Translations under genes and position numbers: made by a program | Part shown: one piece after another, positions 13,040 to 59,425 of the stretch | How the letters are laid out: the number at the start of each line of letters is the position of its first letter | How positions within the stretch are numbered: the first letter of the stretch is position 1 | Notes under the pieces: model-generated | Told to the model about the DNA's origin: nothing | What the model saw: only the letters and a program-made list of their open reading frames with translations | Database searches by the model: none | Origin: Pseudocercospora fijiensis CIRAD86 | Lineage: Eukaryota > Ascomycota > Dothideomycetes > Mycosphaerellales > Mycosphaerellaceae | Assembly (NCBI RefSeq): GCF_000340215.1 | Contig: NW_006921537.1 | Location: 1,515,011 to 1,579,010 of the forward strand | Direction: 5' to 3' | DNA length: 64,000 bases

Positions 13040-13069
13040 CGCTCGGACGCTGGTATGGGACTTTATACG
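13040..13069 (-). repeat. MULE-1 right terminal inverted repeat (30-bp core)
   Basis: Exact reverse complement of 9238-9267. Confidence 0.92.
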
Positions 13070-13074
13070 GGCCC

Positions 13075-13083
13075 GTTTGAACG
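13075..13083. repeat. 9-bp target-site duplication of MULE-1, right copy
   Basis: GTTTGAACG, identical to 9225-9233. Confidence 0.85.
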
Positions 13084-13474: not shown

Positions 13475-13539
13475 ACAGGACAGGACAGGACAGGACAGGA
13501 CAGGACAGGACAGGACAGGACAGGACAGGACAGGACAGG

Positions 13540-13544
<5 letters not shown>
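13475..13544. repeat. (ACAGG)14 pentanucleotide microsatellite
   Basis: Fourteen uninterrupted copies of ACAGG. It opens long spurious frames on both strands, which are not genes. Confidence 0.95.
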
Positions 13545-13583
<39 letters not shown>

Positions 13584-13588
13584 AGGTG
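13545..13588. repeat. (CACAGG)n hexanucleotide microsatellite
   Basis: About seven copies of a CACAGG/CAGGCA unit directly continuing the pentanucleotide array. Confidence 0.92.
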
Positions 13589-14000
13589 TCTGCCGTTTAT
13601 CACAGATCTCGCAAGAGGAAGAGGCGCCGAACTCACATGATGGCGCCGCAGATCCTTGCTGGTGCGCTAGCCGCTAGCTGAACCAGAATGCCGGCTGTGG
13701 CTCATAGGCCGGTGGAGCGTGCCTTTGCGTTTTGTGATCTGGACATGGGCATCGCGGCCATGGGGGCACGCTGTGCAGGCTGCTTGCGAGAGGGCATCGG
13801 GCATCAGCGTTCAGCGTTCAGCGCTCAGCGTTCAGCATGGGTCCGGGCCGGGGTGTGCGTGTGCGCGAATGTGAGTGAGTGAGTGAGTGTGTGTGCGTGT
13901 GAGCTGTCTGGTGTATGCGTGCTATGCGACTCGCAGCGACTCTCGCGTGCAGACGGCAGAGTTGGCTGTTGTTGCCATGGCCGCTCGCTGCGTGCATTGA

Positions 14001-14124
14001 NNNNNNNNNNNNNNNNNNNNNNNNNNNNNNNNNNNNNNNNNNNNNNNNNNNNNNNNNNNNNNNNNNNNNNNNNNNNNNNNNNNNNNNNNNNNNNNNNNNN
14101 NNNNNNNNNNNNNNNNNNNNNNNN
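14001..14124. other. Assembly gap (124 N)
   Basis: A run of N about 0.6 kb upstream of the transcription factor start. Flanks are low-complexity and GC-rich. Confidence 0.99.
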
Positions 14125-14687
14125 ACAGCGGGCAGCAATCAGCTGGCCGCTGTCTGCCGTACGAGCCCACGAGTCCTGACCAGCCCACAGCCAACCTACA
14201 CGCCCGGCACCCGCAACCCTCGACACCGTGATCCGATCGCAGCGCAGCGCAGCGCTGCAAGCCCATTGCAGTATTGCCGCCCGCCCGCCCGCCCGCCGGC
14301 TATCTCGCTGCTCCCTGTTCCTGGACGGCATCGCCCTCCGAGGAGCCCTCCTGGCCACTCGTCCTGCAAACGGGCATTTTAGCTTTCGTCTGCTCCCAGC
14401 TCCCGGCCTGCTGGCTCCATACCCAGATAGCTCGTTGCAGCCGTCAAAGTTAGAGTGCACTCGGCTCTGCGTAGGCTCGCGGAGCAACATCCCTCAAGAC
14501 TAACATAGCTTTGCTTCGACCGTTAGGTCATGCCAATTCGCTGTGCCTGCACCCTTGCGCTGCCTCGCCTTGCTTACTGCGATTCACCCAGCTCAACGGA
14601 GGCCATGTCGCGAGCCTGACCTGCGCACGCCCGCCCGCGAAAGCATCCCCGGCTGCCCACGACGTAGTAGCTCTCAGCCTTGACCGC

Positions 14688-14738
14688 ATGGCTCGAGGCC
14701 TTGCATTATGGACTCCAGGAGACCACCTTACGCAGTAG
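14688..14738 (+). promoter_or_regulatory. Overlapping upstream ORF (16 codons) of the transcription factor gene
   Basis: An ATG at 14688 opens a 16-codon frame that starts MARGLALW and stops at 14736-14738. It passes through the main start codon at 14708 in another frame. If it lies in the mRNA it would compete with the main start. The transcript start is unknown, so this is a candidate only. Confidence 0.4.
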
Positions 14739-14846
14739 GCCCTCCTCCCTCCAACAGCCACGACCCGCGCGCGCCGCCACCAGTACCACACTTCCAGCAG
14801 CATCACCAGCAGCACCAGCAGCACCAGCATCCACACGGCCCTCCAC

Positions 14847-14885
<39 letters not shown>

Positions 14886-17800
14886 AGCACCAGCAGCACC
14901 AGCAGCACCCTCAGGGCCATCCGCCGCCCGCACAGGCTCAGGCGCAACAACCACCAGCGCAGCATTACCAGCAGTATCAGCATCCAGCGTCCTACCCGCC
15001 GCCGCACTCGGGCGCAAACACCATTCCTGACAAAGGACCAGCGCTGCCGCCCATCCAGTCGGCGGCGTATGCTCCTCCTGGCTCTTCGGCAGAGCAGCAG
15101 CAACCTCTGCCTTCCTTCAGACAGCCCTCTGCGCCGCCGTCCCACGACCCGCGCGAACCTGCACCGCAATATCATCCAGATCCATACCACAATCGCTCCG
15201 GCCATGCCACACCGGCACCCGTGAACAGGTCATACTCTCACGATTCTGGGCAACAACGCACGCCCGCAACGCCGACTGCTCCACCTCCACTCTCTCACCA
15301 ACAAGGACCAGAAGGCGCGCAACAGGCGCCGCCCGGTCCTCCACCTCACTCCCAGCCCATGGAGCATGGGCACCCGCAGTATCCACCGCCTACCAATGGC
15401 GTCCAACATCATGGCTTGCCACATCCACAGTATGCCATGACGCCCATGATGGAACAGCACCACTCGTATCCGCCACCAGGACAGCCGATGTACCAACCTC
15501 AACAGACTTACGGGCCAGCGTCAGCCAACATGTACGGTCAGAAACGGAAGCAAATGCGTGCGACGCAGGTGCGTGAAGTATATTGACTCAATCTTGACTT
15601 CACTGACACGTCTCAGGCCTGCGAGCAGTGCCGGCAACGCAAACAAAAATGTGACGAAGGCGCTCCGTGCTCGTTCTGCAAAGAGAACAATCTGTCGTGC
15701 CAATATAGAGATACGCCACCCGCCAAGTACGTGCTCAGGTGCACTTTCTTTCTGACAAGCAATGGAAGCACTGATAAATCGACAGGACCGACAAGAACAT
15801 GGACAAACTGTTGCACTATATGGAAAGTCATACACAAGGCCTTGCGGATCTAACGGCCAAGATTGATCGCTTTGAAGAAAGAATCCGACGCGTGGAGCAA
15901 AACGCCCAGCAATCTCAACAATCAAATCATATCAATCAGTCTAATTACACAGTGGGTGGCGCTGAAAACGAGGTCTCGGGCGCCGAAAATGAAAGAATGA
16001 TCGAAGATGCCCCGCGGCCAAACCGAAAAGCAGACTGGGACGACCATCGCACAGCGCCGCATAAGTTGCTTCTACTGTGGCCGAGTGTCCGGCCTCTTCT
16101 TCGAACGGCAGGAGTCGAGCACAATGACGGATATGTCATGGAGGCCGAAGACCGAGGCGTGCTCAGATTATGGACTCGTGGCGAAGGAATCGATGAGAAC
16201 GATGGCACGCAGCCTGGTGGACCTGCAAGTCCTGCTCGAAGCGACGAAAGTGGCGAAGCAGGCAACGCTGCGACACCACAAGCTGATGGAATTTGGGGCA
16301 TAGGTTTTCCATCGACACCGAGTAGCGACAGGAGATCGGAACCTTGCGGCGCCGGTGGTCTTAAAGCGAACGGCGAAGTCGACCTGGACGCGAGCACAGT
16401 CAACATGCTCTACGACAGCTACATGCGCAACCTGCACATCATGCATCCTTTCCTCGACAAGAAGCGATTGCGAAAGATGTTCGACAACTTCATCAAACGC
16501 TACAGCACTGGAAGGCCTCGTGCAGCCTTTGCTGTGGGGAATGATTACTCAGAGCGACCACTGAAGCGACAGCGATCCAATGGTTCGACGGCGAACATTC
16601 CTGGTACTGGCTCCGATGGCGAGACGAGACGGGAGCCAACTGAGCGCTCGCCTGGAAATGCAATCATCTACCTTGTACTGGCCTTGGGCAAGATTTGCAT
16701 GCACAAGAATCCTCTTCCTCCCCCAGTGCCAGACAGCAAATTGCAGTCCAACAGCTACGTCGCGCACGAAATTCGTGGCATGACAGCCTGTTCCCCAGTA
16801 TCTGTGAACATCAAACCGTCCCCAATGTCACCGAAATCTACACCGACCACGCAGCCCACGCCTCCCTCGGAGGCGAATCTACGCATGCACGATGCTCGAA
16901 GTCGACGCTCATCAGTAGATGGATCGCCGAGTTCTACACCAGGGCCGAGAAATCTGGATGTTGTGCCAGGTATCGCCTACTATGCCAAAGCTGCTGAGAT
17001 CCTCGGTGACCAGGGCGATGGTAACGACCTCGTTCACGCTCAAATGTTCCTCCTCGCAGGTCTTTACAAAGGCCAACTTGCCCGAGTCAAGGAGAGTATG
17101 AGCTGGATCACCATGGCTGGGCGCGCTTGTCGCATCTTGCTAGATCGGTACAAGTTGTACAACGACACATACTGGGGCGAATACGGTGGACTTCGCGCGA
17201 CCTACATGAGCTCGCAAGCGCGTATCAAGGATACGCGACAAAGTTTGATCGTCCTTGCCTCCTGGACGTGCCTGCAGTTGGAAAGCGACATCCTTGCAGA
17301 ACTGCGGCTGCCCGATAGTGGAATTCAGAAAGTGGAGTCTTTGCTATTGATGCCGCACAAGATCAATGACAACGAGACATACGTTGGCCTCGAAACAGAT
17401 GGTCAGCCGGAAGACTACAACAACATTCTAATCTTCTACTCGGCGCAGATGTTCATCCGACGAAGACTGAACCAAGTGCACCGAGAAATGTACGGCAAAG
17501 ACTCTCTCGATCAGCCACTCCTAGCCGTGCAGAACATGCTCAATGAGCACGAGAATATCCTGGTGCAGTGGAGGAACGGTTTGCCGGACTTCCTGGCATG
17601 GAACGATGACGATCCACCGCCTCAAGACATCCTCTCAGCGCGCCTACGGGCCAAGTACTGGGGAGCGCGCTACGTTATCAACCGGCCATTCCTCGATTAC
17701 GCGCTACACATAATGCCGCACGTTCGCGACGGACAGACCGTTGAATCGGTCGCAAGAGACGGCTACGGCAATCCACGCGACAAGGCCGACATTCATCTAT

Positions 17801-18270
17801 TCAAAGCGATCGAACAGCTGGGCGAGCGCCAAGTCTGGCAGGCTGCGAAACGTTGCATCGATGCTGCAATGCATAGTACCGTTGCGTTTGACGGCGTTCC
17901 GGATCGCTTGATCGTCACCAACATTCACGGCACGGCACATGCGTAAGTTATCCTTGATCTTTACGGCCTGGCGTTACTAACAACTGATCACAGTCAATTT
18001 GGCAATATGCTTGTGCTGTCCGCTGTCTACAACAGCGAGTATATGAAGACACTGGTTCCAGAACACAAGTTCAAGAGACTTCTACAACGAACGATCGGTT
18101 TCCTGCGAAGACTGTCGCCGATTTCGCCGACGTGCTCGGCGGATTGCGTGATTCTCGAGAAGTTCCAGCATACTCTGTTCGGAGTCGGCGAGGAATTGAA
18201 AGGCGTCTACGCGAACGAAGGCGTGGAGCCGATGAGTGCCTCGAATTCCTTTAGTGCTCCTAGTAGCTGA
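14708..18270 (+). CDS. Zn(II)2Cys6 transcription factor with fungal-specific regulatory (MHR) domain
   Basis: Four exons, 14708-15568, 15617-15726, 15786-17942 and 17994-18270, join without frame error to 1134 residues. Introns are 48, 59 and 51 bp with GTGCGT, GTACGT and GTAAGT donors and AG acceptors. TTACTAAC in intron 3 is a good branch point. The start has A at -3 and G at +4. Residues 1-287 are low complexity: His/Gln-rich and a run of about 15 Pro encoded by (CCG)n. Exon 2 encodes the whole zinc cluster, C-x2-C-x6-C-x5-C-x2-C-x6-C at Cys 289-315, followed by a linker and a short coiled-coil-like segment (about 329-360). The fungal_trans domain spans roughly 528-920, with LYDSYMRNLHIMHPFLDKK at its start and SWTCLQLESDILAELRLP near 805. 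It should be a nuclear DNA-binding regulator. I cannot name target genes or an orthologue. No premature stop and no RIP signature, so it is probably functional. Confidence 0.93.
14849..14884 (+). repeat. (CCG)n coding microsatellite, polyproline
   Basis: Twelve CCG triplets encode most of the Pro run in the transcription factor N-terminus, between His/Gln-rich stretches. Confidence 0.9.
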
Positions 18271-43553: not shown

Positions 43554-43751
43554 TATAAGAAGGGTTATGTTAGCAGGTAGATAGGGTAGTAGTAAATTAG
43601 TGTAGTATTCGATAGAGATCTAAGAGGAGAGGGAGGAAGGTAGGCAAGTTAGTCTAACGCTAAGCGCTAAGCCCTACCTAAGGCACTAAGACCCTAGCTT
43701 TACTCGAGCCTAGTTATATATCAATTACGTATAACCTCTTTAGTCCTAATA
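43554..43751 (-). repeat. LTR of gypsy copy A' (198 bp)
   Basis: Begins TATAAGAAGGG and ends TCCTAATA on the plus strand, i.e. the reverse complement of the element A LTR. Confidence 0.9.
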
Positions 43752-45373: not shown

Positions 45374-45381
45374 GTAGTGCT
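45374..45381. repeat. 8-bp target-site duplication of the hAT transposon, left
   Basis: GTAGTGCT, identical to 59418-59425. Eight bases is diagnostic of hAT transposons. Confidence 0.9.
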
Positions 45382-45516
45382 TAGACCCCGTAGTAGTTCG
45401 GTTTCCGAACTACTAAACGTATATAGTTTAGTTTCTTAGCGGCGAACTAGCTCCCTAGTTCCGGTTTGGTTTTTTCGAACTATATAGATTCCTAGTTTAA
45501 ACTAGAGACTATATTA

Positions 45517-45806
45517 GTTTTACTATAAGGACACTCTTATTCGACTGCCGGCTACGATTGCCGGCTATAATAGTAACTCTGTTACATTTACTACGCCCTT
45601 TTGCCGTTGCTAGGGCGTAGTTGTCGTTGCTAGGGCGTAGTTGCTGTTACTAGGGCGTAGTTTTGCTATAAGGACACTCTTATTCGACTGCCGGCTACGA
45701 TTGCCGGCTATAATAGTTACTAGGTTGTATTTACTATGCTCTATTACCGTTGCTAGGGCGTAGTTGCCGTTACTAGGGCGTAGTTGCCGTTACTAGAGCG
45801 TAGTTG
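45517..45806. repeat. 143-bp direct duplication with 21-bp minisatellite in the hAT left arm
   Basis: A block starting CTATAAGGACACTCTTATTC occurs at 45523 and again at 45666. Each copy contains two GCCGGCTA motifs and ends in about three 21-bp units (TTGCCGTTRCTAGGGCGTAG). MULE-2 inserted right after the second array. Confidence 0.85.
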
Positions 45807-45815
45807 CTATTGCCG
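45807..45815. repeat. 9-bp target-site duplication of MULE-2, left
   Basis: CTATTGCCG, identical to 49257-49265. Confidence 0.88.
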
Positions 45816-46067
45816 CCTAGCTACTAAACCGAGCCCTAGCTACCCGCCCGAGCCCTAGTATATCCTAGTGCTAGCACTATTATAGAATCGGCTTTATATA
45901 GAATTACGTACTCTTTCTACCTAATATAGGCTATTTCCGTTCTTAGTTAGTATTATTAACAGGCGCGTAGCGCGTTGCCTAGGAAGGAATTCTGCTCGAA
46001 TCTACTATATACCTAAAATTCGCATTTCTTCCCCCTTCTATAGTAGATTGCCTAGTAACTATCGAAA

Positions 46068-49035
46068 ATAGCTAAATCTCTATCGTACGACGAGTTTCTC
46101 GAAGAAGTTATCGCTAGCGGCGGTATCGCGGCGGCGGCGGCGGAGGCGGTAGTAGTAGAAGGTATTAAAGGTGCTAAAGGTGTTAAAGAAGGCGCTAAAG
46201 GCGCTAAAGGCGCTAAAGGCGCTAAAGGCGCTAAAGGCGCTAAAGGCGCTAAAGGCGCTAAAGAAGGCGCTAAAGGTACTAAAGGTGCTAAAGGTGCTAA
46301 AGGTACTAAAGGCGCTAAAGGTGCTAAAGGTGCTAAAGGTACTAAAGGTGCTAAAGGTGCTAAAGGTGTTAAAGGTATTAAAGGTGCTAAAGGTATTAAA
46401 GGTGTTAAATCGTAGGAAGAGGTTCAATTTGTCTCGGAGACACGTATTCGAGGCCGCTTACGCTCACTGTCGCTACCGCGCGAGCGTATTAATCTACTAG
46501 ATTATCGGTTAGTATTACTACGCCCTTAGAAGTACCTATTCTTATTAAAGGAGCGCTCTCGTAGTCTAATACCGCTTAAGTCGCAATTTCCGTTATATCG
46601 AGCCCTCGAGTCGTACGTCTATACCTTCGGAAAAGCGACTAGATTCGAGTTTAAGCAGTATAAGCCGTAGAAGAATAAGGATAGTCTTAAATATCGCTAC
46701 CGCTAGGTATATAGTTGCTTCGGCTTACTAGATAAGCGTACCTAGAAGGAAGGAGTAATAAAGCGGAAGTTAACCTCGAAGAAGATAGGTTATAAGTTCT
46801 ACTTCTACGTAGTTGCTATCGACCCTAGCTAGCCCGAAGGTTAGTAGGTTATTCGCTATTCTACGGAAGAAGAGCACTGTTTCTATAACTACGAGAAGGA
46901 CGACGTTATTGCCCTTACTATCTATAGAAGGCAGTCGAGAATAGTATAGTTTCTTAAGCAACTCGAGCGGCTTTAGTAAGCCCGAATGCTAACCTCGAAG
47001 ATTATAGTATACTTTCGAGGCTATAGTATTCTCCTAAAGCCGAAGGACATTAACAATATTACCTAGACTCGCAATATTAAGGCACGTCGACAGCTGAACT
47101 AGGCTAAACGTATAGTTTAGTTACTAGACGACTACACTATCTTTTACGACATTATCGAGAACTCGGAAAATAGAGCTATTCGGTATATAGTTACCCTCTA
47201 TCCTCGCTTAATAGAGGCCTTTAAGAACACGCTATATACGCTTATCTTAGATACGACATACTCTACGAATATCTATAACCTCGAGTTAATAGACATTGTT
47301 AGTACTAGTCCTATAAATGACACTATTGAATTAGGCGTTAGTCTTATCCGTCCGAAGCTAGATAGGCTAGACTTTGTTACGCTCTTAAAGGCTATCCGGA
47401 AGGGCCTTAAACAAGCAGATTGCGCTATGCTATCGGTTATTAGTACTAACCGTAAAGAAGCTCTTATAGGTGCTATTAAGGAGGTATTTCCGGAGTCTAC
47501 TAATATCGTATATAACTAGCATCTATAATAAGATATATTAACTCGAGTCCGCAAGGAACGAGGCGAGTTTAGTTAAGTTAAGAGCGACGGTTATTGGATA
47601 GACAGCCCTTAAACTAGCAAGTTTCTACGGCTCTTTACGTATACTATCTATAGTTAAACTAAATAGGAGTTTAACGAGAACGTAAAGAAGTTAGACAACG
47701 TGTATCCTATGTTTAAGACCTATCTTTACAACAACTAGTAGCGATATAAGGCTTATATTATCGACTGCTAGACTAACGAGGTTCTTTACTTTAGTTGTAA
47801 GATAACCTCTCGAGTTGAAGCTATATATAGACGCATTAAACAGTAGCTTAACTATAGTAGCCGCTACGACATCTTCACGCTCTTTAAGAGCCTATTGCAA
47901 TAGTAGCAAGAAGGTTACGACCGCCGTCGTATTGCCCTTGCTAAGAACCTAAAGAGGTACAATAAGGCACTAACTAGACTATTCTAGGCGAGTGTATCTC
48001 GTATAATAAGCGACTATTGCTTGCTCGAGGTAAAGGCACTATATTTACGAGCTAACGACCTTCTGCTTACTACAACTAACGACAACGGTAACGAGGTAAA
48101 GCACTTAGCGTTCTCGTATAGCTATCTACGGTACCGCTATAACGATTACCTTCGTAAGACCTATAGTTATCCGTGCATCTACGACTTAATAAAGCTTATT
48201 AAGATAGGCGGCAATCGCGCCGTTCTATTACTAAGTCACTTCTACGAGCACTAGTTTATCGACTTCCGCAGAACGGTCCGTCTACGAGAGCCGGAGGTAA
48301 TCTTTAGTAACCGTAAACCTCTTACTAGCGGAGCTATATTGTATATAACAAAGCGCGCTGCTATAGCTCGCGAATTAGACGACCTAAATAAGACAGTAGT
48401 CGCTAAGCGATAGAAGACAGCGATAGCTAGAACAACCGAGTTTACACTCGAGCCTAGTATCTTACTTACTTAGCTAAGGACGACCGTTAAGCACTATAAG
48501 TACGTTAAGAGCTAATGCCGCACTTAACAATGCCCTTACTAGAAGGCTAACCGTGCGTGTAGCTCTGCTTGCTATCTAAGCGGCTTTAAGTGCTATAATC
48601 TACGAGTCGAGTCTTTACTTCTAAAGGTACTAGAGCCTCCTTCTAAGCTAGACTTACTCCGCCGAGAGATTGAAGACCTCCGAGTACGTAAGAACGCTCG
48701 ATTATAGGCAGAAGAACAACGTACGAGACAGCAGGCAGACTATAGCCGCTAGTAGGCGGTATTGTATAAGTAACAATAACGATAGGCTGCTTAGCAACAG
48801 CACTAGTAGTCGCTTATATAGCTAGCAGGAAGGCCGCTTTATTACTAGGTGCTATAGTAACAGCACTATCAGTCTACTTAGCAATAGTAGTATACTAGCT
48901 AGCAATAGCACTATTAGTTCACTTAGCAACAGCAGTATGCTAGTTAGCAACTAAGAGACTAGTATAAGCTAGCATATATAGCCTCGCGTAGTTACAAGGC
49001 TACAGGTCGTAATCCGCTTAGGCCTAAGTAGATAG
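46068..49035 (+). pseudogene. MULE-2 transposase with Gly-Ala-Lys repeat N-terminus
   Basis: One frame runs from an ATA at 46068 (likely a mutated ATG; AKSLSYDEFLEEV follows) through the whole element. Residues about 32-115 are Gly-Ala/Val-Lys triplets. Next comes a FAR1-like region (DSLKYRYR, then KIGYKFYFYV) and the MULE DDE core with LILDTTYSTN (Asp codon at 47250) and KEALIGAIKEVFPEST. The WHL motif that follows is damaged. A Cys-rich segment (about 48516-48600) and a Gln-rich tail follow. The second catalytic Asp position reads Asn (STNRKEAL), a RIP-type change. The exact stop is uncertain because the tail is full of TAG codons. Confidence 0.85.
46161..46412 (+). repeat. 9-bp GGYGCTAAA minisatellite coding for Gly-Ala-Lys
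   Basis: About 27 copies of a 9-bp unit. In the transposase frame they read Gly-Ala-Lys with Val/Ile/Glu variants, a collagen-like Gly-X-Y periodicity. Other frames give long artificial Lys-Ala-Leu or Ser-Thr-Phe proteins that should be ignored. Confidence 0.92.
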
Positions 49036-49256
49036 CTAATAACTAACAACACCTTCAATTTTGCTATACTACTAATTTGCTAACAAACTTTAGCTTTATA
49101 GCTAGCAGCAGTATTGCAGTAGTTACCCGGCTAGCGGGGCCTACATCGACGCGATTATCCGCTTCTATACGCGATTATATATAGAACAGCCGATCTCGTA
49201 ATCTCGGGATATGCTAGGGCTCGGGCGGGTAGCTAGGGCTCGGTTTAGTAGCTAGG

Positions 49257-49265
49257 CTATTGCCG
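49257..49265. repeat. 9-bp target-site duplication of MULE-2, right
   Basis: CTATTGCCG, identical to 45807-45815. Confidence 0.88.
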
Positions 49266-49439
49266 GGGCGTAGTTGCTATAGTTGCGAAAGCTTACCTAT
49301 ATAACGTTACATAGGCGGTAACAATTAGGGCTTCGCGATATTCTTATACTTTTAACTTCTTCCTCTATACCTATACCGACAATAACTACTATACGCTGCG
49401 CCCCCGCCCCTTTCCCTTATAATAGTAAGAGAGAAGCGC

Positions 49440-50830
49440 GCCGCGCGCTAAATAGAAGATAGAACTAAAGACCGCGAGTTTGTTTTGCCTAAGCGTCTAA
49501 CTAAAAAGCGTAAGACTAAAGAGGAGTACTCTATAAAGAAGAATTCCGTACGAGACCGCGAGAGAAAGGAGAAGATAGATAAGGATAAAAGAGCTAAGGA
49601 TAAGAGAAGAAAGGCGCGGAATAAGGCATTCTATCGATAGCTAGCGCCTATAGAAAAAAGTAAAGGTTAGAATAAGAAGACAACCTAAGAGAAGGCTAAG
49701 AGGAGGAAAGAATTGCGGCTAGTTTTCGAGCGTAAAGTTCTAGTAGCGTAAGTTAATCCAGCTAGCGGCCGTAGCTAGTAGCTATAGCCGGCAGCTATAG
49801 CCGGTAGCTATAGCCGGCATATTTTTCTTTAATACGTTAACTAATAGCATTTAGACCTGTAGCCGCTACCTCTATCGATACGACCGATAGTAACGGAGAT
49901 ATTTAGATAGCCGAGAATAACAATACTAGAGTTTAGGATGCCGCGATAGAGCTTAATACTACGAATAAAGGAACTAAAAAAAGCGAGGAGATACTATACG
50001 TCGATCTAGTAATAGGTACAGTCTTAGGGCCTAACGCTATAGACGATAAGCGCTAGGAGTAGATCGAGTACGGTTAAAGAGACGAGATACTAGTAAAGGG
50101 CTAAGGCATAAGTCCTATTAATCTAGAAAATTATAGTTAAAGCTACTACGAAAAGCTAGTAAAGATTGGAATCGAGACTAGTCGTCTTTATATCCTCGAT
50201 ATAGAGTAGAAGTTTCTTTATTAGTATTAGAGCGAAGCCTTTACGTCTATAAAGGCAAAGTAGCTTACGATTAATGCGATTAGGGCTAGGTATCTAGGGA
50301 CGGTAGAAGTATTACTATAGGAGGAAGGGGTATAGGTAATTATTCTATACTCGGTATATATAGCCGGCGTTCGTAGCCGGCAGATACTAACAGTTAAATA
50401 GAAAGCGTTTCTCGAAAGTAGAGTGCTACTACTATATAAAATCTTTACTAAGGCAGAGAGGGCTTATATCCGGAATCTAAGCTACTAGTAGGATAGGTTA
50501 GCGTTAGAATTCTCTCAATCTCTATATAAGCCTCCGAAGGATTACCTATTTTAGCGATACGGCTTTATCTCGACTACTCCGTAGGTACCCGAAGAAGCTC
50601 GAGCGCTCTTTAAGGTCTTTACTAAGAAGCGGAAGGAGTTCGAGGATTAGGATTAGTTAATAGAGCTATTAGTTAGTCTTAGGTTTCGTAGTTAGACTCG
50701 GCCTAAGCATTTGCTTATCGAGTATCTTATACCGAAAGAGGATAGATTAAGACTAAAAACGAGCTTAGATTCGTTAGGTATAGTAGCTCGGTTCCGTTAG
50801 TACGAGAGAGCTACTATATAGAAGGCAAAA
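49440..50830 (+). pseudogene. Basic protein gene of the hAT transposon, unrecognised
   Basis: Three exons are readable on the plus strand. Exon 1 (about 49480-49747) is extremely Lys/Arg-rich (KRLTKKRKTKEEY, ERKEKIDKDKRAKDKRRK). Exon 2 (49848-50335) is mixed and acidic. Exon 3 (from 50402) includes KAFLESRVLLLYKIFTKAER and PKHLLIEYLIPKEDRLR. Introns 49748-49847 (GTAAGT...CTAATAG) and 50336-50401 (GTAATT, ATACTAAC branch point, TAG) both contain GCCGGC repeats. The phase across intron 1 could not be made certain. No domain recognised. A DNA- or chromatin-binding role would fit the basic region but is not shown. RIP stops throughout. Confidence 0.5.
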
Positions 50831-50831
50831 T

Positions 50832-50960
50832 TTAGGTAGTTAGGGTAGCTAGGAAAGAAATTCTAGTAGTTAGGCTAGCTAGGGTAGCTAGGAAAAAAAA
50901 TCTAGTAGTTAGGTAGCTAGGAAACAAAAAAAAAGGTAGCTAGCTATTTACTACCTAGCT
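50832..50960. repeat. Degenerate GTAGTTAGGGTAGCTAGG repeat between two hAT genes
   Basis: Three imperfect copies of a roughly 40-bp unit separated by A-rich spacers, ending in a short inverted repeat (GGTAGCTAGC ... CTACCTAGC). They occupy the space between the basic gene and the transposase. Confidence 0.65.
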
Positions 50961-50979
50961 ATTCCTAACGATACGATAC

Positions 50980-50987
50980 TATAAAAG
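50980..50987 (+). promoter_or_regulatory. TATA-box candidate for the hAT transposase
   Basis: TATAAAAG about 80 bp upstream of the first readable transposase codons, in the gap between two genes. Confidence 0.35.
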
Positions 50988-51059
50988 AAAGGGTGTTTCC
51001 CTATAGCTACTAGTATATATCTACTACTCCTAAGTCCTTACCTTACCGTACGAAACCTC

Positions 51060-54000
51060 AAAATATACCGACCGACATTATATATATACTAGGCGCTATA
51101 CTAGGAAGGGTAATAACGAGACGATAGTCGAAATAGTCTAGTATACGAGCGAGATTGCGACAACGTCGAGAGGAGGTCGTATACTTACCTTCGAGCCTAT
51201 CGAGTCCTAGACGACGATTAGGGCTAGATTTATCCTCTCCGAATCCTAGTAGTAGGAATTTATTATAGGGTACTACTACCTAGTCCTTACCTTTACGGAG
51301 TCTAAGTAGAAGGTTGTTCGGAGATATAAGAATATCGAGTATTAACCCGGAAATCTTCGAAAAGGCTAGCTAGGCGTATCTTTAGAAACCCGAGTATATA
51401 GAGTAGTTCAATTAATAGGTCTATAAAATATAGTTCCCTTTATACTTACGTTTAAAGGAGTATAAACTCCGGAAGTACTCGATGCGATAGGGGAGTAAGG
51501 AGCGAACGGACACATTCTAGAAGTTCTTTATAGAGGGGGCATTATACCGTTATACGACTTCTCGACTTAAAGGTTAACTAGTAATTGTCTATAACTTCTA
51601 CGGTTTAATCTTAAAACACCCGAAACTAGGGGATAGGAACTTATCGCCTACGAACTATCTCTATTCTAAACGGTATCGGGAATCTTAAGAAAAGAGGAGA
51701 GTTAATATAGATATAGCGTTCTAGAAAGAGGTATATCTTCTAAAATGCCGGCTATAGCTACCGGCTATAGCTGCCGGCTATAGCTGCCGGCTACAGATTC
51801 TAGCTACTTTAATTAACCGTAGAAATCTAGCTAATTATTATAGGCTACGCTTAAGGAAGCTCTAGGATTAAAGGCTACCGATTTCTCCCCCGAAGACTTT
51901 AAGCAACTAGCAAACGAAATGCTAGCTATAAACGGTCTTCCGGAAGACTTCTACGAAAGGGAGTCTATATAGAAGATATACCTATATCTTATAAACTACC
52001 CTCCCCTATTTCTCGGCGCGATAACCTAGCGTATTATATTCGAAAAGAACAAAGAGGCTACGTTAGACGATATTCGGGAGATCCTCCGTAATACTCGCCG
52101 AGTAGCTATTACTATCGATAGCTAGTTAAGCCGGACTATAAGAGCCTCCTTCCTCTCGATTATACTATACTTTATTAATTCGGATTAGAAACTCTAGGAA
52201 CTTATAATCGGATTCCCTAAAATTCTAGGTTCCTATACTAGTAAGGATATAGCGAAGCTTGTCTATACGGCAATAGATAGGGTTAGCGTAATAACGAAAC
52301 TAATCTCGATTACTACGGACAACGCTAGTAATAATCGAACATTATATAAGGCGTTATATATACAATTTACTCGTATATGTCTTTGAAATTACTAATTATA
52401 TCGATAGGGTCGAGTATATAGAGGAGATTATAAAGTATCGTTTAAGCCCTATAGTGCTTGTCCTAATCGAGCGGAGCGACGGAGTAGCGCTTAAGAACAA
52501 TATTAGACTAGCGCTAAAACTAAAAGCGTTTACGCTTTAATATTATATTAGGGGGATAGTAGTAGTATTGGCGTATTATAGTGTTACCTTTGTTGCCTTT
52601 GTTGTTGTATAAAAGTATAGCCTAAGGTTAAAGGGTACGTAACTCGGATTCGATTTTAGACTAATTAGAGGGCTCGGTTAGTTTTGCGGGCGCGTCTTTA
52701 AAATTTAGCCTCCCTATACTACAACTGCCTATTTACTACTATTACTGCTACTACTAACTATACGCATACGTTATTAGCACTAATCTGATTTGTTCTTAAG
52801 CGCTACTCTAGACTAATAGACACCTTATACAACTCTCGTCGTAAGCTCCTTAAGTTGCTCTAGGTGCCTATTAGTCTATCGCTCCGCTCGAATAAGGTCT
52901 ACAATCTAGCTTAATCTTCCGAATGTTAAGCTCGCTACGATTCCGGATACGTACGATAATACGTACGACGATAACGATAAAGAGGAGCCTAGTAATAGCC
53001 CTAGCCCTATTAAATCGGAGCCGACGTCGTTACTAGTTACATCCCTATAGAAGTTTCCCTACCTCGCTTATATAGTTTAAATCGCGATCCGAGCCCTCTT
53101 TAAGACGCTTAAAATTGTACTATTAAACGACGACTAATAGAAGATCCTAGATAAGGATAAAGCAAAGTCGAAAGTCGAGAAACTTATTATAGTAATAAGA
53201 CGGGATAAGGTAGAGAGCCTCGCTCTCGTTTTATATAAGGTATAACTTTTGTCTGCAGCCGGTACCTATAGCCGGCAACCTAGCACAGTTCCAACTCTTT
53301 TTCTCTAGCTTCGTCGTCTAGCAATATATACGAACTCGAGCTTATAGAGATATAACCGATTCGAGGCTATTTAAAAGAACCTAATCGAGCGCCCTAAAAC
53401 CGATGCCTAGAATATCGTATAGAATAAGCGATAGCAAAAGCGGCCTCCTTAGCGCCTACTCCGTTTTACCTAAGACGTTAAGACCCGGTTCGATTCGACT
53501 TTCTATATAGTTACGAGGGGATATACTTTATATACCGCTCTCGAGATCTATTAGAGTTCCGAGGGTATTAAGTAGCTCGGCCTTACCGCCGCCGAATAGC
53601 GCTAAGTAGAGTATCTCGTCGATATTAGTAAGCATTACGCGAAGGTTACTACTACGATTAGAAGAACCCGAGGACTAACGATCTACCTTGTCTTTACGTA
53701 CTATAACTAGCTCTTTAACGAGCTCGAGGAAACCGTAGCTAAGCTAGCTAAGAAGAGCGTTCCCTAGAAAGTAGCTATAACGAAAGCTATAGACAGCTCC
53801 TATACTAAGTTGCATAAATATTATAGTGCTACCTTTAAGTTGTTCGGGGATATCTATAGCGTTACGTACTTACTTAACCCGGTAGAAAAGGATATATACT
53901 AGTAGAGGCCGGAATAGAAGGCGGACGAGGTATAGCCGAAGCATTACTAGACTATTCTAAAAAAGATATTCTACGAGCGTCGGAAAGAAACTAGTCTAAA

Positions 54001-54720
54001 TATAGCTCCTACGAAGAAAAAGAAGGTTTAAAGGGCTCCGATATTATACCTATTTCGTAGGTAGGAAGTAGAGGCAGAAGAGGAAGCAACTACTAAAGGG
54101 AATAAAGAAGAGTTCGATCTCTATTAGCGCGCGAGTAAGTATAAACCCGTAGGCTCGGAAAGAGGGCTAATAATCTCTAGATCTTACCGGTCTTCTAGAC
54201 GAATTCGGAGACGATATTCTCGCTATATAGTAGCGGTTAGAGCCTAAGTTTCTAACGATAGCGTCGGTCGCTCGGAACGTCCTCGCTATCCCGAGCGTAG
54301 GTATAGGCTATAAGAGGTCTTTTAGTATCGCTCGTTACTAGGGCCGCTTTAATCGAATATACTCGCCTACTACCTTCGAATCTATTATAGTATTCCGATA
54401 CTATCTCCTCTACTAGAATCGCTAAGGTAGGTTACTAAAGATTATACTAAAAGAGTTAATCGAGGAATTAGAAAACCTTAAGATCGAAGAAACCTAGGAG
54501 CGCGAAGAGAATACGAAATTTAGTCTAAGCGAAACCCTAATTAGCGATAACGAAGAGAAGGAGGGCGGAGGTAGAAGGCGATACTAGGTCGAGAAGCGGA
54601 AACATATATAGGCTTAGAGTAGCTTTAAGGAGACGAAGCGTTTACGTATAAGGTAATATAGCCGGCATATATAGCTGGTATATATCCGAAATATATTTCG
54701 AATTCCTAGGACCTAAACAG
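51060..54720 (+). pseudogene. hAT transposase, RIP-inactivated and interrupted
   Basis: The central RNase H-like fold is legible: RRVAITIDS at about 52097 with the first Asp, then ITTDNASNN at about 52310 with the second. After a non-coding insertion (about 52468-52890) the frame resumes, with DVKTRFDSTFYIVTRGYTL and EYLVDISKHYAKVTTTI at 53470-53640. The hATC dimerisation region is at about 54200-54390: DEFGDDILAI, FLTIASVARNVLAIPSV, FSIARY. Introns with GCCGGC repeats are likely at 51731-51822, 53240-53308 and from 54653. The N-terminus (51060-51730) shows no legible BED finger. The enzyme excises and inserts the element with 8-bp duplications, matching the ends found. Many TAG/TAA stops. 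Confidence 0.85.
52468..52890. repeat. Inverted-repeat insertion within the hAT transposase gene
   Basis: Outer arms CGAGCGGAGCGA (52468-52479) and its complement (52879-52890), and inner arms GAGTAGCGCTTAAGAACAA (52482-52500) and 52790-52808, surround about 290 bp without coding signal. Transposase coding stops before and resumes after it. It could be a MITE-like insertion or a large structured intron. No flanking duplication was fixed. Confidence 0.55.
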
Positions 54721-54967
54721 ACTAGTTGCTATAGCAACCGACCCCGCTTATCTACGGACTATTTCTAATTCTCTATTCGCTCTTCCTCTCTTTCTTCCCT
54801 TTCCCTATATTCTTAAAGATAAATATACCTTAAGGATTCGGCTCTTCGGGCCTTCCTAAGCTAGCTACCTCCCCTTCCTTAAGCTACTATCCTTTATTCG
54901 AATCTAACGATAACCTACTAAGGCGGTTTAATAGAAGACTATTTGTTCTAGAAGGCAAGAAGTATTA

Positions 54968-55620
54968 ATGTCTCCTTACGATTATATACTTATTAATTTT
55001 CTAGGTCCTACTAATATACCCTCGTCGCCTAAACGCGTAGATAAATATCTTTAGAGGCTAAAGGGTAAGGGTAAAGCAAGCTAAGTATAGGGAGACCGTA
55101 GCGAGAACGAGATATCGGAAGAGTAAGGCTCTCTATAGTATATACGAAGGAAGGGGGTTCCTCGGAAAACAGTACCGAAAAACAAGAAGGCTTTAGGTAG
55201 ATAGGAGAAGGCTAAAAAGAGTAGGCGGACGAAGATTATCGCGAAGAAAAGTTATCTTTCTATTAAAAAAAAGGGAATAAGGCAGGACTCGACGATAAAG
55301 AAGCGGCGCTTTAAACTAGGTACTATTGCCCTTCGCTAGATCCGGCTTTTCTAAAACAAAAGAGGGACCGAGCTTTTAATCTCTAAGACTCCCTTCTAGC
55401 GACTCGTCCGAGAAATTACATTAGATTTTCGGTCTAGTATACGATTTACGGCTAAGGCGATTAGTGCTCTTTAGGAAGCTACGGAGGCATTTCTCGTAAC
55501 CGAGCTTAAGCTTTTAAACCTCCTTACTATCTATACGAAGCGGGTTACTCTTTAAAATAAAGATATATAGCTTCTAGCTAAAATTCGGCGTCGGTTTATA
55601 GCGGATTAGTTAGAAATTGT
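54968..55620 (+). pseudogene. H3-a: histone H3-like gene with long basic tail, carried by the hAT
   Basis: ATG 54968 opens a single frame that stays in register through a histone H3 fold. The first about 119 residues form a Lys/Arg-rich tail (start MSPYDYILINFLGPTN, later KKALGR, KKSRRTK). The fold begins GTIALR-IR and shows GTELLISKTPF (as in H3 STELLIRKLPF), RLVREITLDFRSSIRFTAKA, the EATEAFLV segment of helix 2, IYTKRVTL and NKDI-LLAKIRRRF. Spacing between landmarks matches H3, with one extra residue before LLI and no lengthened loop 1, so it is H3-like rather than clearly CENP-A. All stops inside the fold fall where H3 has Gln. The sequence runs on after the fold and its real end is unclear. 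I infer a nucleosomal or chaperone-bound H3 variant encoded by the transposon. Confidence 0.82.
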
Positions 55621-55689
55621 ATTTAGTCGTTAGATTAACCTAGGAGGAGGCCTATTTTCGCATCCTTTTACCGGCTATAGGTGCCGGCT

Positions 55690-56000
55690 ACATTTCTAAT
55701 TTTATCTCCGCGCCGTCCCTAAATCTAAGGTACGAAGTAGAAACCTAGCGCTCTATATTTACCCGGCTATTATAGAGACGAGCTACATTTAGATTAGTTT
55801 CTTCGCATATCGCGACCTAGCGGGTAGTAAGCGAAAGGGCGATAGAACGTTTATAATACGTCTCTATTTAGACCTAAAATACAAAGGTCCTAAGGAGCCC
55901 TAGCATCCTAACTATAAGGAGATTCTTTAGTATTAGTACTTTAATCCTCTATACTACGAGGCAGATAGTAAGCCTACGAGAGAGAAACTTTAACGAGAAA
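55690..56000 (+). pseudogene. Unrecognised coding fragment after H3-a
   Basis: After a GCCGGC-containing stretch (55,665-55,690, perhaps an intron) the plus strand again reads as coding: LRAVPKSKVRSRNLALYIYP, ISFFAYRDLAGSKRKGDRTF, IIRLYLDLKYKGPKEP. It may be a C-terminal extension of H3-a or a separate gene. No family recognised. It ends at the duplicated segment. Confidence 0.4.
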
Positions 56001-56713
56001 TTCTCTATAATACGTAGCGCTATTGTATAGCTATAGATGCGTACTAAGTCCGGTAACTCGAAGAAGAATTAAGATAGCGTATTAGCGACCGAGGAGGAGA
56101 TCGATAGTATACTAGTAGAGTCGAGGTCTTATAAGCGAAGCATAAGATAATATAGGCTCTTAGTCGTATAGAGTAACGTACTATATAAATAACTAGGCGT
56201 GCTACTCTTATTTACTTACGGCCTATATCCTAGGATGCTCTTCTCGTACTTTTTATACTCTTTTCTAATACCTTACCTATAATCGCTCCGCGATAACCGA
56301 GTAAATATAAGCTATAGGATTTCCGCTCGGTACCTTAGCCTTCGAGATACGGCGGAGTTGATTCTCTATAATACGTAGCGCTATTATATAGCTATAGATA
56401 CGCACTAAGTCCGGCAACTCGAAGAAGATTTAAGACAGCGACCGAGTAGGAGAAGAATAGTATATTAGTAGAGTCGAGGTCTTATAAGCGAAGCACGAGA
56501 TAATATAGGCTCTTAGTCGTATAGAGTAACGTACTATATAAATAACTAGGCGTGCTACTCTTATTCACTTACGACCTATATCCTAGGATACTATTCTCGT
56601 ACTTTTTATACTCTTTTCTAATACCTTACCTATAAGCGCTCCGCGATAACCGAGTAAATATAAGCTATAGGGTTTCCGCTCGGTACCTTAGCCTCCGAGA
56701 TAGGGCAGAGTTG
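56001..56713. repeat. 361-bp tandem direct duplication in the hAT
   Basis: TTCTCTATAATACGTAGCGC occurs at 56001 and again at 56362. The two copies (56001-56361 and 56362-56713) stay alignable to their ends with RIP-type differences and a short deletion in copy 2. No clear coding sense. The copies lie between H3-a and H3-b. Confidence 0.88.
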
Positions 56714-57260
56714 AATTTAGAGGAATAGCCGGCACTCGTAGCCGGTATATAGAGACGGTAGTAGGCCTTTTCCTACTAAATAACTAGCTTGTTTAGTATA
56801 GCCTACCTGATATTTCTTATATTTACTAGTAATAGGCCTAGGTTACTTATAAGATTACTATAGCTAGTAAAGGTATTACTAAAGAATATCTATACTATAG
56901 TAGGATACTATTATTACGCCGGCTATTTATTAAAAGGAGGCTTTCGCCTATTACTATACCGGCTATATATGCCGGCTATATTTCAAAGTCTACCGTACCT
57001 GCCTTTTTTAGCCGTACCTACCTTTTTTAGCCGTACCTGCCTTCTTTCCTTACTCTAACGTTACTATAATATAGGCTTGCGCGAAGCTTACTCTATTGCC
57101 TAGCGATACCGCGATACTACCTCTCTCGCTATATTCAACCTTCGTATCGATACCTATACCTCTACGCTCTATATCTACTACCTCCGTAATACCCTCGCTC
57201 CGCGCGCGCCTTCGTATACCTTCGTAACGCACTTTTTTCCTTAATTCGACGATTTTTATA
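56714..57260. other. Spacer between the duplication and H3-b
   Basis: Contains two further GCCGGC repeat clusters (about 56,726-56,745 and 56,934-56,960) and a CCGTACCTRCCTTTTTTAG triplication at 56,992-57,045, but no coding signal I trust. Confidence 0.5.
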
Positions 57261-58000
57261 ATACCGAGTCTACTTAACTAAGTTACGACGCCTCGTAAGA
57301 AGGGACCTACTGCTTCTACGGGTCGCAATAAGACCGGAAATAATAGAACGAGTATAGTATATTAACGTAAGAGGGCTGCTACTACTACCGCTAGCTCCGG
57401 TACTAGAAAGGGCGTCGCGAGTAAGGCTCTACGTAAGACAATAGCGGGCAAGGCTCTACGTAAGACGACAACTAGCGCTTCTACTACTAGTAGTAATCGT
57501 ACGAAGCGTCGATAGCGCTTAGGAAGTAAGTCCTATTTATAGCCGGTAGCGTAGCCGGCAGCGTAGCCGGTAGCGTAGCCGGCATTCTTACTATCTTTTT
57601 ACTAATCCTTCTTTAGCCGTAGCCCTCCGTTAGATTCGGTAGTATTAGAAGAGTTCTAAGCTCCTAATCCGTAAAGCTCCTTTCCGACGACTTATTCGCG
57701 AAATTGCCTAGGTTTATAGAACGGACCTTCGCTTCTAAGCCTCCGCGATAGACGCCCTTTAAGAGGCTATAGAAGCCTACCTAGTTCGTATCTTCGAATG
57801 TATATTTCTCTCCTACCTCTTTTCGGACTATACTAATACTATTTTAGCGGTTAACCTTATAGCTATCTATACGAAGTGTATAACGATTATAGACAAGGAT
57901 TTTAAAGCACTCGATTAGATTCTAAAAGGCTAGAATGTCTACATTCGAGATAGTACTAGATAGGATAGATATTCTAGTAGGAAGGATGTTCGTAGTATCG
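57261..58000 (+). pseudogene. H3-b: histone H3-like gene with spliceable introns, carried by the hAT
   Basis: The likely start is ATA 57261 (mutated ATG). Exon 1 (57261-57525) is a basic tail with TPRKKGPTASTGRNKTG and two GKALRKT-type motifs (ASKALRKT, GKALRKT) that recall the H3 tail GKAPRK. Intron 57526-57616 (GTAAGT, TACTAAT, TTTAG) holds GCCGGC repeats. Exon 2 (57617-57799) carries TVALR-IR-Y, KSSKLLIRKAPFRRLIREIA, VYRTDLRF-ASAIDAL and EAIEAYLVRIFE. Intron 57800-57847 (48 bp) follows, then exon 3 with SVNLIAIYTKCITIIDKDFK, matching helix 3 of H3. Exons join in frame, spacing is exactly canonical, and stops fall at Gln/Trp-type positions. A C-terminal extension continues past the fold. 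It differs strongly from H3-a, so the two are distinct variants. Confidence 0.85.
57526..57616 (+). repeat. GCCGGC-repeat intron of H3-b (type example)
   Basis: Four alternating units of AGCCGGYAGCGT inside a textbook small fungal intron. Related clusters lie at about 49,785; 50,362; 51,746; 53,257; 54,661; 55,671; 56,726; 56,934; 58,157 and 59,217, all within the hAT, and twice in its left arm (45,543; 45,690). Confidence 0.8.
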
Positions 58001-58194
58001 TCTATAAGCTTTTCTATATACGAAATAAGCCGCGGTTATACGGCGCTATATACCGCGCTCTAAATACTCTCTAAGTATATATATATAGTATAGTATACTT
58101 TATTAGCCGTACGGAATAGAAGTCTTCGAAAATCCCGTTAGTACTAAGGAGTTAAAAGGCCGGCTACGCTGCCGGCTACGCTGCCGGCTACGCT

Positions 58195-58391
58195 TGTTAG
58201 GACTAAAGAGGTTACACGTGATTAGTATGTAACTAGGCTCGAGTGAAGCTAGGGTCTTAATGCCTTAGGTAGGGCTTGGCGCTTAGCGTTAGGCTAACTA
58301 GCCTACCTTCCTCCCTCTCCTCTTAGACCTCTATCGAATACTACCTATACCTACTACTACCCTATCTACCTACTAATATACCCTTCTTACA
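58195..58391 (+). mobile_element. Solo LTR of gypsy family A (197 bp)
   Basis: Starts TGTTAGGACTAAAG and ends TTCTTACA with intact TG...CA termini, flanked by the 5-bp duplication ACGCT (58190-58194 and 58392-58396). No internal gypsy sequence is attached, so it is a solo LTR left by recombination. It keeps more CpA/TpG than the other family A LTRs here and may have been RIP-mutated less. Confidence 0.9.
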
Positions 58392-58479
58392 ACGCTACTA
58401 GGTCTTATAAAGAACTAAAAGAAGATAGACATTCTAGTTAATTTGTATTAGTTTAGATTTTCATAAAAAGAAAACAAGG

Positions 58480-59000
58480 AAAAAAGGAAGAAGATTAAAG
58501 AACCTAATACTTATAGTTATAGGCATTATCCCTGTTCTCTAGACTATATTATATACCTGCTTTCGCAACTTTACCTAATACTCCTACTAAATATCCTTAT
58601 ACTCTACCTACTAGAAATTCAACTAGGCACCTAGACCTGTAGCTACCTCTATATCTTTTACTATCTTCTATAGGTTAAAGGACTCCTCTATAGTAGCCTC
58701 TACTTCCTTATACAATACGAAGTTACTACCTACCCTATCCTTAATATCTGCTAAATAACCTAGAGTTCTAAGGAACGAACTAGTATTCGGCCGTAGTATA
58801 GCGAGTAACTAGTAGAACGCCCTATAGAGCTACCTTATAGCTGTTTCGTATATAGTGCCGATATCGAGGGAGGAGCTATCTAAGTACTTAATGTTAGAGT
58901 ATAGTTTAGTAGGAAAGTACTAGAACTTCTTAAGGAGAGCTTCGACGGAAATCGATAAGTTCTGCCTAGATCTAGATAAAGACATTCTGCTAAGCAGTTA
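58480..59000 (-). pseudogene. Minus-strand coding fragment near the hAT right end, unrecognised
   Basis: From about 58,960 downward the minus strand reads LSISVEALLKKF, TKLYSNIKYLDSSSLDIGTI, NTSSFLRTLGYLADIKDRVG, SNFVLYKEVEATIEESFNL and KIVKDIEVATGLGA, with few stops. The surrounding 58,396-59,190 is less RIP-like than the rest. Similar sequence (AGTACTAAGGA, TAAAA, then GCCGGCTACGCTGCCGGC) borders it on both sides at 58,140-58,178 and 59,193-59,235. It could be a captured host gene fragment or hAT cargo. Confidence 0.45.
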
Positions 59001-59397
59001 GGGAATTGAACCGTAAACGAAAGGATAAAATTTATACCTAAGGAGTACAGTTTCCGAACTAAACTACAATGCCTTGCATATGTGTACATATGCTTTTGAT
59101 TAGTTAGTGCCTTTAGCTAATTGTCTATAGATTTGAGGTTATATAAGTACCTTTATATAACTACGTAGCCTAAGTAGGATTCGAAAATTCTATAAGTACT
59201 AAGGACTAAAAATGCCGGCTACGCTGCCGGCCATACTGCTAAGTCTTACAAAGGGCTTGCTTAAAGCTGCGTATACATTCGTACACTTCTTAAAAACCGA
59301 TAAATTATATAGTTCGAACTAGCTACTTATATAGTTGCTTAGCAAACTAACCTAAACCAAACTAGAGTTTCGGCTTAGCAAACTAAACTAAACCAAC

Positions 59398-59417
59398 CCG
59401 AACTACTGCGGGGTCTA
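59398..59417 (-). repeat. hAT right terminal inverted repeat
   Basis: Reverse complement reads TAGACCCCGCAGTAGTTCGG, one base different from the left end at 45382-45401 (C/T, RIP type). Followed by TSD GTAGTGCT at 59418-59425. Confidence 0.9.
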
Positions 59418-59425
59418 GTAGTGCT

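What the first reader, a model, noticed from the sequence alone, without database searches (positions are those of the whole stretch)
45382..59417. A hAT DNA transposon that carries two histone H3 variants
Seen: matching 20-bp terminal inverted repeats, a perfect 8-bp target duplication GTAGTGCT, a hAT transposase (TIDS, TTDNASNN, hATC region) and two H3-fold genes inside the same boundaries, all in a gypsy copy whose two halves line up on either side. Known: hAT elements make 8-bp duplications and normally carry only a transposase. Inferred: the element may bring its own nucleosome components, perhaps to mark its chromatin, to escape silencing, or to package its excised DNA. I know of no described system of this type.
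Basis: partly seen in the sequence, partly recalled or inferred. Interest (0 to 1): 0.93.

Follow-up and report, generated by a model that had tools for sequence, protein, structure and literature searches.

The report
Jumping gene carrying two histone genes
This is a dead copy of a fungal jumping gene that carries two altered histone H3 genes; the same kind of element was published in 2013 and 2019, but the copies here suggest that the histone genes were kept more actively than the published account says.

Summary
Confirmed: a hAT-like transposon at 45382-59417 has 20-bp inverted ends, a perfect 8-bp duplication, an empty-site match in 40 of 40 scored repeat copies, and two histone H3 genes. 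Three later insertions inflate it from about 9.9 to 14.0 kb. All eight copies picked by full-length end spacing, and three copies of a diverged subfamily, hold both H3 genes.

Not new: Dhillon et al. 2019 described this family in Pseudocercospora fijiensis (species inferred here), and Manning et al. 2013 an H3-carrying hAT in Pyrenophora. The 2019 reading is passive capture of an intron-less retrocopy.

My results disagree in part. The second H3 has two intron-like segments: one lies 3 nt from a host H3 intron, the other is the paper's "16-residue insertion". Each H3 forms a clade shared by both subfamilies. Fixed transversions favour third codon positions in the H3 folds (20 of 37, P=0.007; H3-1 alone not significant) about as strongly as in the transposase (45 of 86, P=0.0002). 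This fits H3 genes kept by selection. Function is inferred only; one capture or two is unresolved (p-AU 0.30).

The parts
45374..45381 (.). target-site duplication, left copy (GTAGTGCT)
   Evidence: empty-site match
45382..45401 (+). 20-bp terminal inverted repeat, left
   Evidence: 444 forward and 443 reverse matches in the genome at up to 2 mismatches, 0 for the reversed control
45815..49255 (+). later nested MULE insertion, not part of the hAT (PF10551 E=1.4e-8; 9-10 bp duplication GCTATTGCC(G))
49862..50974 (+). ORF A, open only if TAG/TAA are read through; unknown gene without Pfam match
   Evidence: fixed Tv [21,17,28], P=0.077; 3 of 9 copies have a net indel that is not a multiple of 3
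51338..51736 (+). transposase piece 1
   Evidence: fixed Tv [2,2,12] against one subfamily-2 copy, P=0.0008
51841..52380 (+). transposase piece 2 with TIDS and TTDNASNN
52434..52891 (.). 458-bp later insertion, absent from 8 of 8 other copies
53330..54151 (+). transposase piece 3
54147..54560 (+). transposase piece 4, hAT C-terminal dimerisation-like region (sub-threshold)
   Evidence: PF05699 E=0.005 in L012, 0.008 in L051
54968..55630 (+). first H3-like gene (H3-1): about 115-residue basic N-terminal extension plus H3 fold (fold about 55313-55606), no intron at the host intron-2 site; its end is not determined
56000..56714 (.). tandem duplication of about 353 bp between the two H3 genes (two units here, L013 and L014; one unit in the other six fetched copies)
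   Evidence: (D2, D9)
57345..57525 (+). second H3-like gene (H3-2), exon 1: tail with GKA-RKT repeats; start not determined
57526..57616 (+). H3-2 intron-like segment 1 (GTAAGT ... ACTAAT ... TTTAG), 3 nt from the host H3 intron-2 position; holds a GCCGGC minisatellite
57617..57799 (+). H3-2 exon 2 (H3 alpha-N to alpha-2)
57800..57847 (+). H3-2 intron-like segment 2, 48 nt: matches in length the 16-residue insertion of the 2019 paper
   Evidence: 48 nt in 12 of 12 copies, ACTAATRC and TTTTAG in 12 of 12
57848..57930 (+). H3-2 exon 3 (L2 and alpha-3)
58195..58391 (.). 197-bp later insertion; inverted 89% copy at 43563-43749
59398..59417 (-). 20-bp terminal inverted repeat, right (one mismatch)
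59418..59425 (.). target-site duplication, right copy

Best explanation
The feature is one RIP-inactivated copy of a large hAT-like DNA transposon family of a fungus, very probably Pseudocercospora fijiensis. While it was active, the family carried, besides its transposase and an unknown gene, two divergent histone H3 genes that were kept by selection as genes of the element. Shown: the ends, the duplication, the empty site, both H3 genes in all full-length copies examined, RIP-type decay, and third-position bias in the pooled H3 folds. Inferred: the H3 proteins pair with host H4 and form altered nucleosomes. Their tails, as far as they can be read, lack the usual ARTKQTARKS start, so they would put variant, poorly silenced chromatin on the element or its transposition complex during its active phase. 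RIP later killed the copies examined.
For: 8 of 8 copies picked by end spacing (9,565-9,998 bp) are colinear through both H3 genes. A second subfamily, 81% identical over the first 6.3 kb and 76% over the H3-2 part, has similar ends and a perfect GAAGTAAA duplication (L051), and both H3 genes in 3 of 3 fetched copies (chosen by H3-1). H3-1 of both subfamilies form a clade (100/100), as do H3-2 (99/99), each on a long stem. Transversions fixed between subfamilies sit at third codon positions in the H3 folds: 20 of 37, P=0.0075, ratio 0.42. Transposase: 45 of 86, P=0.0002, ratio 0.46. Tails (9 of 31) and a spacer (9 of 21) show no bias. In nine subfamily-1 copies, leaving out copies with a net frameshift in the piece, the in-frame stops of the transposase, H3 and ORF A pieces are TAG or TAA, none TGA. 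H3-2 has two intron-like segments. RIP indices: TpA/ApT 1.85 against 0.57 in a GC-rich part of the window. In Pyrenophora an H3-carrying hAT has ESTs for its H3-like gene (passages of PMC3538342).
Against: The function is untested. The counts are small: H3-1 fold alone [4,1,6], P=0.12; H3-2 fold alone P=0.025; the tails show no constraint. Only three subfamily-2 copies were used, and all copies are RIP-damaged. The intron-like segments and about 90 nt around the second one differ less between subfamilies than the exons do, which a plain intron does not predict. Copies with the same ends and no H3 exist: 373-bp MITE-like ones (L019, L020), and two shorter stretches with the left part of the element, one including part of the transposase, but no H3 (L017, L018). 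The genome lists each include one H3 copy with a TGA, which RIP does not make from a sense codon. The 2019 authors read the same family as passive capture of a retrocopy.
Confidence: 0.55

Rival explanations
1. Passive transduplication (Dhillon et al. 2019): the hAT captured an H3 retrocopy once, carried it as cargo without function, and RIP destroyed all copies.
For: Published for this family with 784 H3-like copies. H3-1 has no intron at the host intron-2 site. Tails of both genes show no codon-position bias, and the H3-1 fold alone is not significant. p-AU 0.30 does not reject one common origin of the two H3 genes.
Against: H3-2 has two intron-like segments, one 3 nt from a host intron position. 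The pooled H3 folds show third-position bias like the transposase. Both H3 genes are kept in two subfamilies.
Confidence: 0.33
2. Each subfamily captured its own cellular H3, so the codon-position bias is that of cellular H3 genes and not of the element's.
For: A hAT element has taken up H3 elsewhere (Pyrenophora).
Against: H3-1 of both subfamilies share a long common stem (0.93 changes per column, 100/100), and so do H3-2 (0.74, 99/99). Surrounding DNA is colinear at about 80%.
Confidence: 0.06
3. The H3 genes lie in a separate mobile element nested in the hAT.
For: Nested insertions do occur in this copy.
Against: No break around the H3 genes in 8 of 8 copies, and both genes lie in the second subfamily at the same places.
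Confidence: 0.02

Closest known systems
H3-carrying hAT family of Pseudocercospora fijiensis (Dhillon et al. 2019, PMC6710886; Abstract, Background, Results, Methods and the first of two parts of the Discussion read)
   Same: Full length 9.5-9.9 kb there (9.57-10.0 kb in eight copies here), 20-bp ends, 8-bp duplications, two H3-like genes in full-length elements, a 16-residue (48-nt) excess in the second, CpA to TpA decay, one intact three-exon host H3 on scaffold 6 (here contig C6).
   Different: The paper sees no introns and infers a retrocopy; H3-2 here has two intron-like segments. It reports DUF659 and no dimerisation domain; here DUF659 did not show and a weak dimerisation match did. The parts that I read name no second subfamily and do not test constraint between element subfamilies.
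H3L-carrying hAT of Pyrenophora tritici-repentis (Manning et al. 2013, PMC3538342; passages read)
   Same: hAT transposase, an unknown central ORF and an H3-like gene between inverted ends.
   Different: 5.6 kb, one H3-like gene per element, nearly identical copies, with ESTs. The 2019 paper found no DNA similarity between the two hAT elements; I could not compare the proteins.
Pack-MULE type transduplication in plants (as described in the two papers; not tested here)
   Same: A host gene moved inside a DNA transposon.
   Different: Pack-MULEs are non-autonomous gene-fragment carriers (recalled); here the H3 genes sit beside the transposase and are kept in two subfamilies.

Membership tests
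hAT superfamily DNA transposon | 8-bp target-site duplication | tested here: met
   Perfect in the window, in L051, and in 5 of 7 testable full-length copies (L010 and L013 not, L014 cut off); perfect in the 373-bp copies L019 and L020.
hAT superfamily DNA transposon | short terminal inverted repeats | tested here: met
   20 bp, 19 of 20 identical in the window; 444 and 443 genome matches at up to 2 mismatches.
hAT superfamily DNA transposon | hAT transposase with C-terminal dimerisation region | tested here: inconclusive
   PF05699 at E=0.005 and 0.008, below the Pfam cut-off; TIDS and TTDNASNN seen, their link to hAT recalled; no homologue of one transposase piece in the protein search.
P. 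fijiensis H3-hAT family of 2019 | full-length size 9.5-9.9 kb | tested here: met
   Eight copies of 9,565-9,998 bp from their end coordinates; two of the eight are slightly above 9.9 kb, and the copies were picked by this spacing.
P. fijiensis H3-hAT family of 2019 | two H3-like sequences, the second with a 16-residue insertion | tested here: met
   48-nt segment in 12 of 12 copies.
P. fijiensis H3-hAT family of 2019 | same letters of the 20-bp end | not testable with these tools
   The letters are in a figure that is not held.
P. fijiensis H3-hAT family of 2019 | host genome of about 73 Mb (3 Mb stated as 4.1%), three-exon H3 on scaffold 6 | tested here: met
   73.94 Mb; intact H3 third exon on C6, three exons. 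Against: 30 contigs here, 56 scaffolds in the paper.
retrocopy (intron-less) origin of the H3 genes | no introns | tested here: not met
   Met for H3-1 at the host intron-2 site; not met for H3-2, which has two intron-like segments. No transcript was available.

The most novel reading that the evidence does not exclude
The two H3 variants were working accessory proteins of the transposon, kept by selection about as strongly as its transposase across two subfamilies. A DNA transposon thus brought its own nucleosome parts, and H3-carrying hAT elements in two fungal orders are a functional class rather than accidents of capture.
Probability: 0.4. Interest if true: 0.85.

Novelty: already known. 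Interest (0 to 1): 0.42.

Why it matters
The element itself is in print as an example of a captured housekeeping gene killed by RIP. If the H3 genes were selected, it would be a case of a transposon encoding nucleosome components. That makes a clear question testable: does a mobile element gain from supplying its own histone, and does this recur in hAT elements of fungi?

Tried and rejected
Nested-insertion origin of the H3 genes: rejected. One capture or two: unresolved; the four TE sequences do not group in the tree, but grouping is not rejected (p-AU 0.301). Shared differences of the two H3 genes from host H3 were first taken as a link; several can be made by RIP, so RIP-ambiguous residues were masked for the tree. 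The tree used 30 of the 66 hits (those that passed a motif filter), two host proteins and four TE rows; the H3-2 row of subfamily 2 has a long end branch and the host CenH3 row was joined by hand. Homologue searches with ORF A (926 candidates) and with a transposase piece (773 candidates) gave none at E<=0.001, so I could not test relation to the Pyrenophora element. The H3-1 search gave 66 histone-domain proteins among 501 candidates, the best-scoring 46% identical; no name given there mentions a transposon, and many have no name. A minus-strand ORF in 58392-59417 is not kept open in the other copies. In one search the third H3-2 exon was counted in a wrong phase; one search is the corrected count. 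One search used one subfamily-2 copy and gave the same trend. An all-copy alignment was not used because two copies aligned poorly. Two end pairs at about 14-15 kb spacing in the list were not fetched; that list shows only the first 100 of 887 ends. Genome counts of H3 copies are capped at 150 scored per search, so I give no genome total.
Full report
What is there. The window holds a transposon copy at 45382-59417 with 20-bp inverted ends (one mismatch; shuffle expectation 0.02) and the exact 8-bp duplication GTAGTGCT. The joined flanks with one GTAGTGCT match 40 of 40 scored genome places at 95-99% (1,037 first-look candidates), so insertion into an existing repeat is well supported; that the repeat is gypsy was not tested. 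Both H3 genes are real: Pfam Histone E=2.3e-23 and 6e-20, H3 chains of the PDB at 2e-27 and 2.4e-24.

Size and later insertions. From the first 100 of 887 listed ends I took the eight pairs spaced 9,565-9,998 bp. All eight are colinear with the window copy through both H3 genes and lack three pieces of it: a MULE (about 45815-49255; PF10551 E=1.4e-8), 52434-52891 and 58195-58391. Without these the window copy is about 9.9 kb; like L013 and L014 it has two units of the 353-bp duplication, which the other six have once. The target duplication is perfect in 5 of 7 testable copies, not in L010 and L013; L014 is cut off. Two 373-bp copies (L019, L020) have the same ends and perfect duplications but no genes. 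Two more fetched stretches with closer ends (L017, L018) hold a MITE-like copy and only the left part of the element, one with part of the transposase, and no H3. The end pattern occurs 444 and 443 times in the genome at up to 2 mismatches, against 0 for the reversed control.

Decay. RIP indices are extreme: TpA/ApT 1.85-1.86 and (CpA+TpG)/(ApC+GpT) 0.18-0.20 in two parts of the element, against 0.57 and 1.37 in the GC-rich stretch 13001-18000. In nine subfamily-1 copies (window and L009-L016) the in-frame stops in the transposase, H3 and ORF A pieces are TAG or TAA, none TGA; copies with a net indel that is not a multiple of three were left out of this count (one copy in each of four of the nine transposase and H3 pieces, three copies in ORF A). 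In the capped genome lists one H3 copy each has a TGA. Of the 150 histone matches scored, only the host H3 and a CenH3-like exon have no stop.

Already published. Dhillon et al. 2019 (PMC6710886; Abstract, Background, Results, Methods and part 1 of 2 of the Discussion read) describe this family in P. fijiensis: 784 H3-like sequences in 471 elements, full length 9.5-9.9 kb, 20-bp ends, 8-bp duplications, a second H3-like copy with 16 extra residues, all inactivated by RIP, and an intact three-exon host H3 on scaffold 6. Here the genome is 73.94 Mb and the best intact H3 match lies on C6; the contig number differs (30 here, 56 scaffolds there), so the species is inferred. Manning et al. 2013 (PMC3538342; passages) describe a 5.6-kb hAT with an unknown central ORF and an H3-like gene in Pyrenophora tritici-repentis, with ESTs. 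The searches (listings only) showed no later paper on this family in their listed rows. The library lacks most subscription papers.

Second subfamily. L051 holds an 8.6-kb relative with similar ends (3 and 1 mismatches), a perfect GAAGTAAA duplication, 81% identity over the first 6.3 kb and 76% over the H3-2 part. L052 and L053 hold further copies of both H3 genes. All three were found through their H3-1, so only the presence of H3-2 is independent. In a tree of 36 H3 rows with RIP-ambiguous residues of the element's genes masked, H3-1 of the two subfamilies form one clade (100/100) and H3-2 another (99/99), each on a long stem. The two do not group, but grouping is not rejected (p-AU 0.301).

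Selection test. RIP makes transitions, so only transversions fixed between subfamilies were counted. H3 folds [10,7,20] at codon positions 1, 2, 3 (P=0.0075 against one third); transposase [25,16,45] (P=0.0002); first-and-second to third ratio 0.42 and 0.46. H3-1 fold alone P=0.12, H3-2 fold alone P=0.025, tails [10,12,9] no bias, ORF A [21,17,28] P=0.077, spacer [4,8,9] P=0.24. Transposase piece 1 and ORF A rest on one subfamily-2 copy. Exon limits were set by eye, and the P values are not corrected for the number of regions tested.

Introns. H3-2 is interrupted at 57526-57616 by GTAAGT ... ACTAAT ... TTTAG. GTAAGT is kept in 12 of 12 copies and the ACTAATCCTTYTTTAG end in 11 of 12. The site is 3 nt from the second intron of the host H3 gene (read). 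A second segment, 57800-57847, is 48 nt in 12 of 12 copies, holds ACTAATRC and ends TTTTAG, and begins GT in 3 and AT (the RIP product of TGT) in 9. Only 4 of 8,383 48-mers of the element have GT, CTRAY and AG so placed. It matches the '16-residue insertion' of the paper in length, and lies in the second copy as stated there. H3-1 has no intron at the host intron-2 site. Against a plain intron reading, these segments have very few fixed transversions (1 of 77 and 1 of 48 sites in the stretches counted).

Transposase. The dimerisation region that the 2019 authors did not find shows as a sub-threshold match, PF05699 at E=0.005 and 0.008 in the two subfamilies; the DUF659 that they report did not show. 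No protein relative was found for one transposase piece or for ORF A.

Reading. Established: the anatomy, the RIP decay, the prior publication. Supported but not proven: H3 genes kept by selection as genes of the element. Inferred: altered nucleosomes that protect the element or its complex from silencing. The finding as given is known; the selected-gene reading is the part worth following.

Noticed in passing
45815-49255: Nested MULE (PF10551 E=1.4e-8) with 51-bp inverted ends and a 9-10 bp duplication; inside it a 9-base tandem repeat at about 46162-46437.
   Followed up: partly
49771-49819, 51746-51807, 53257-53277, 55669-55694, 57540-57584, 58158-58194, 59213-59239: Short GCCGGC/TAGC minisatellite blocks recur mostly between the coding pieces of the element, one of them inside the first H3-2 intron-like segment.
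   Followed up: no
58195-58391 and 43563-43749: A 197-bp insertion has an 89% inverted copy (187 nt) 14 kb away outside the element: a small dispersed repeat.
   Followed up: no
L019 and L020: 373-bp MITE-like copies with the same 20-bp ends and perfect 8-bp duplications.
   Followed up: partly
57762-57849: About 90 nt spanning the end of H3-2 alpha-2 and the 48-nt segment has almost no transversions between the two subfamilies, less than the exons around it.
   Followed up: partly
49862-50974: ORF A, a gene of unknown kind with no Pfam match and no homologue found; the Pyrenophora element also has an unknown central ORF.
   Followed up: partly
P0001 and P0002: Two H3 proteins of 181 and 176 residues with repeated GKAPRK-type tails from unnamed sources, best hits of H3-1.
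   Followed up: no
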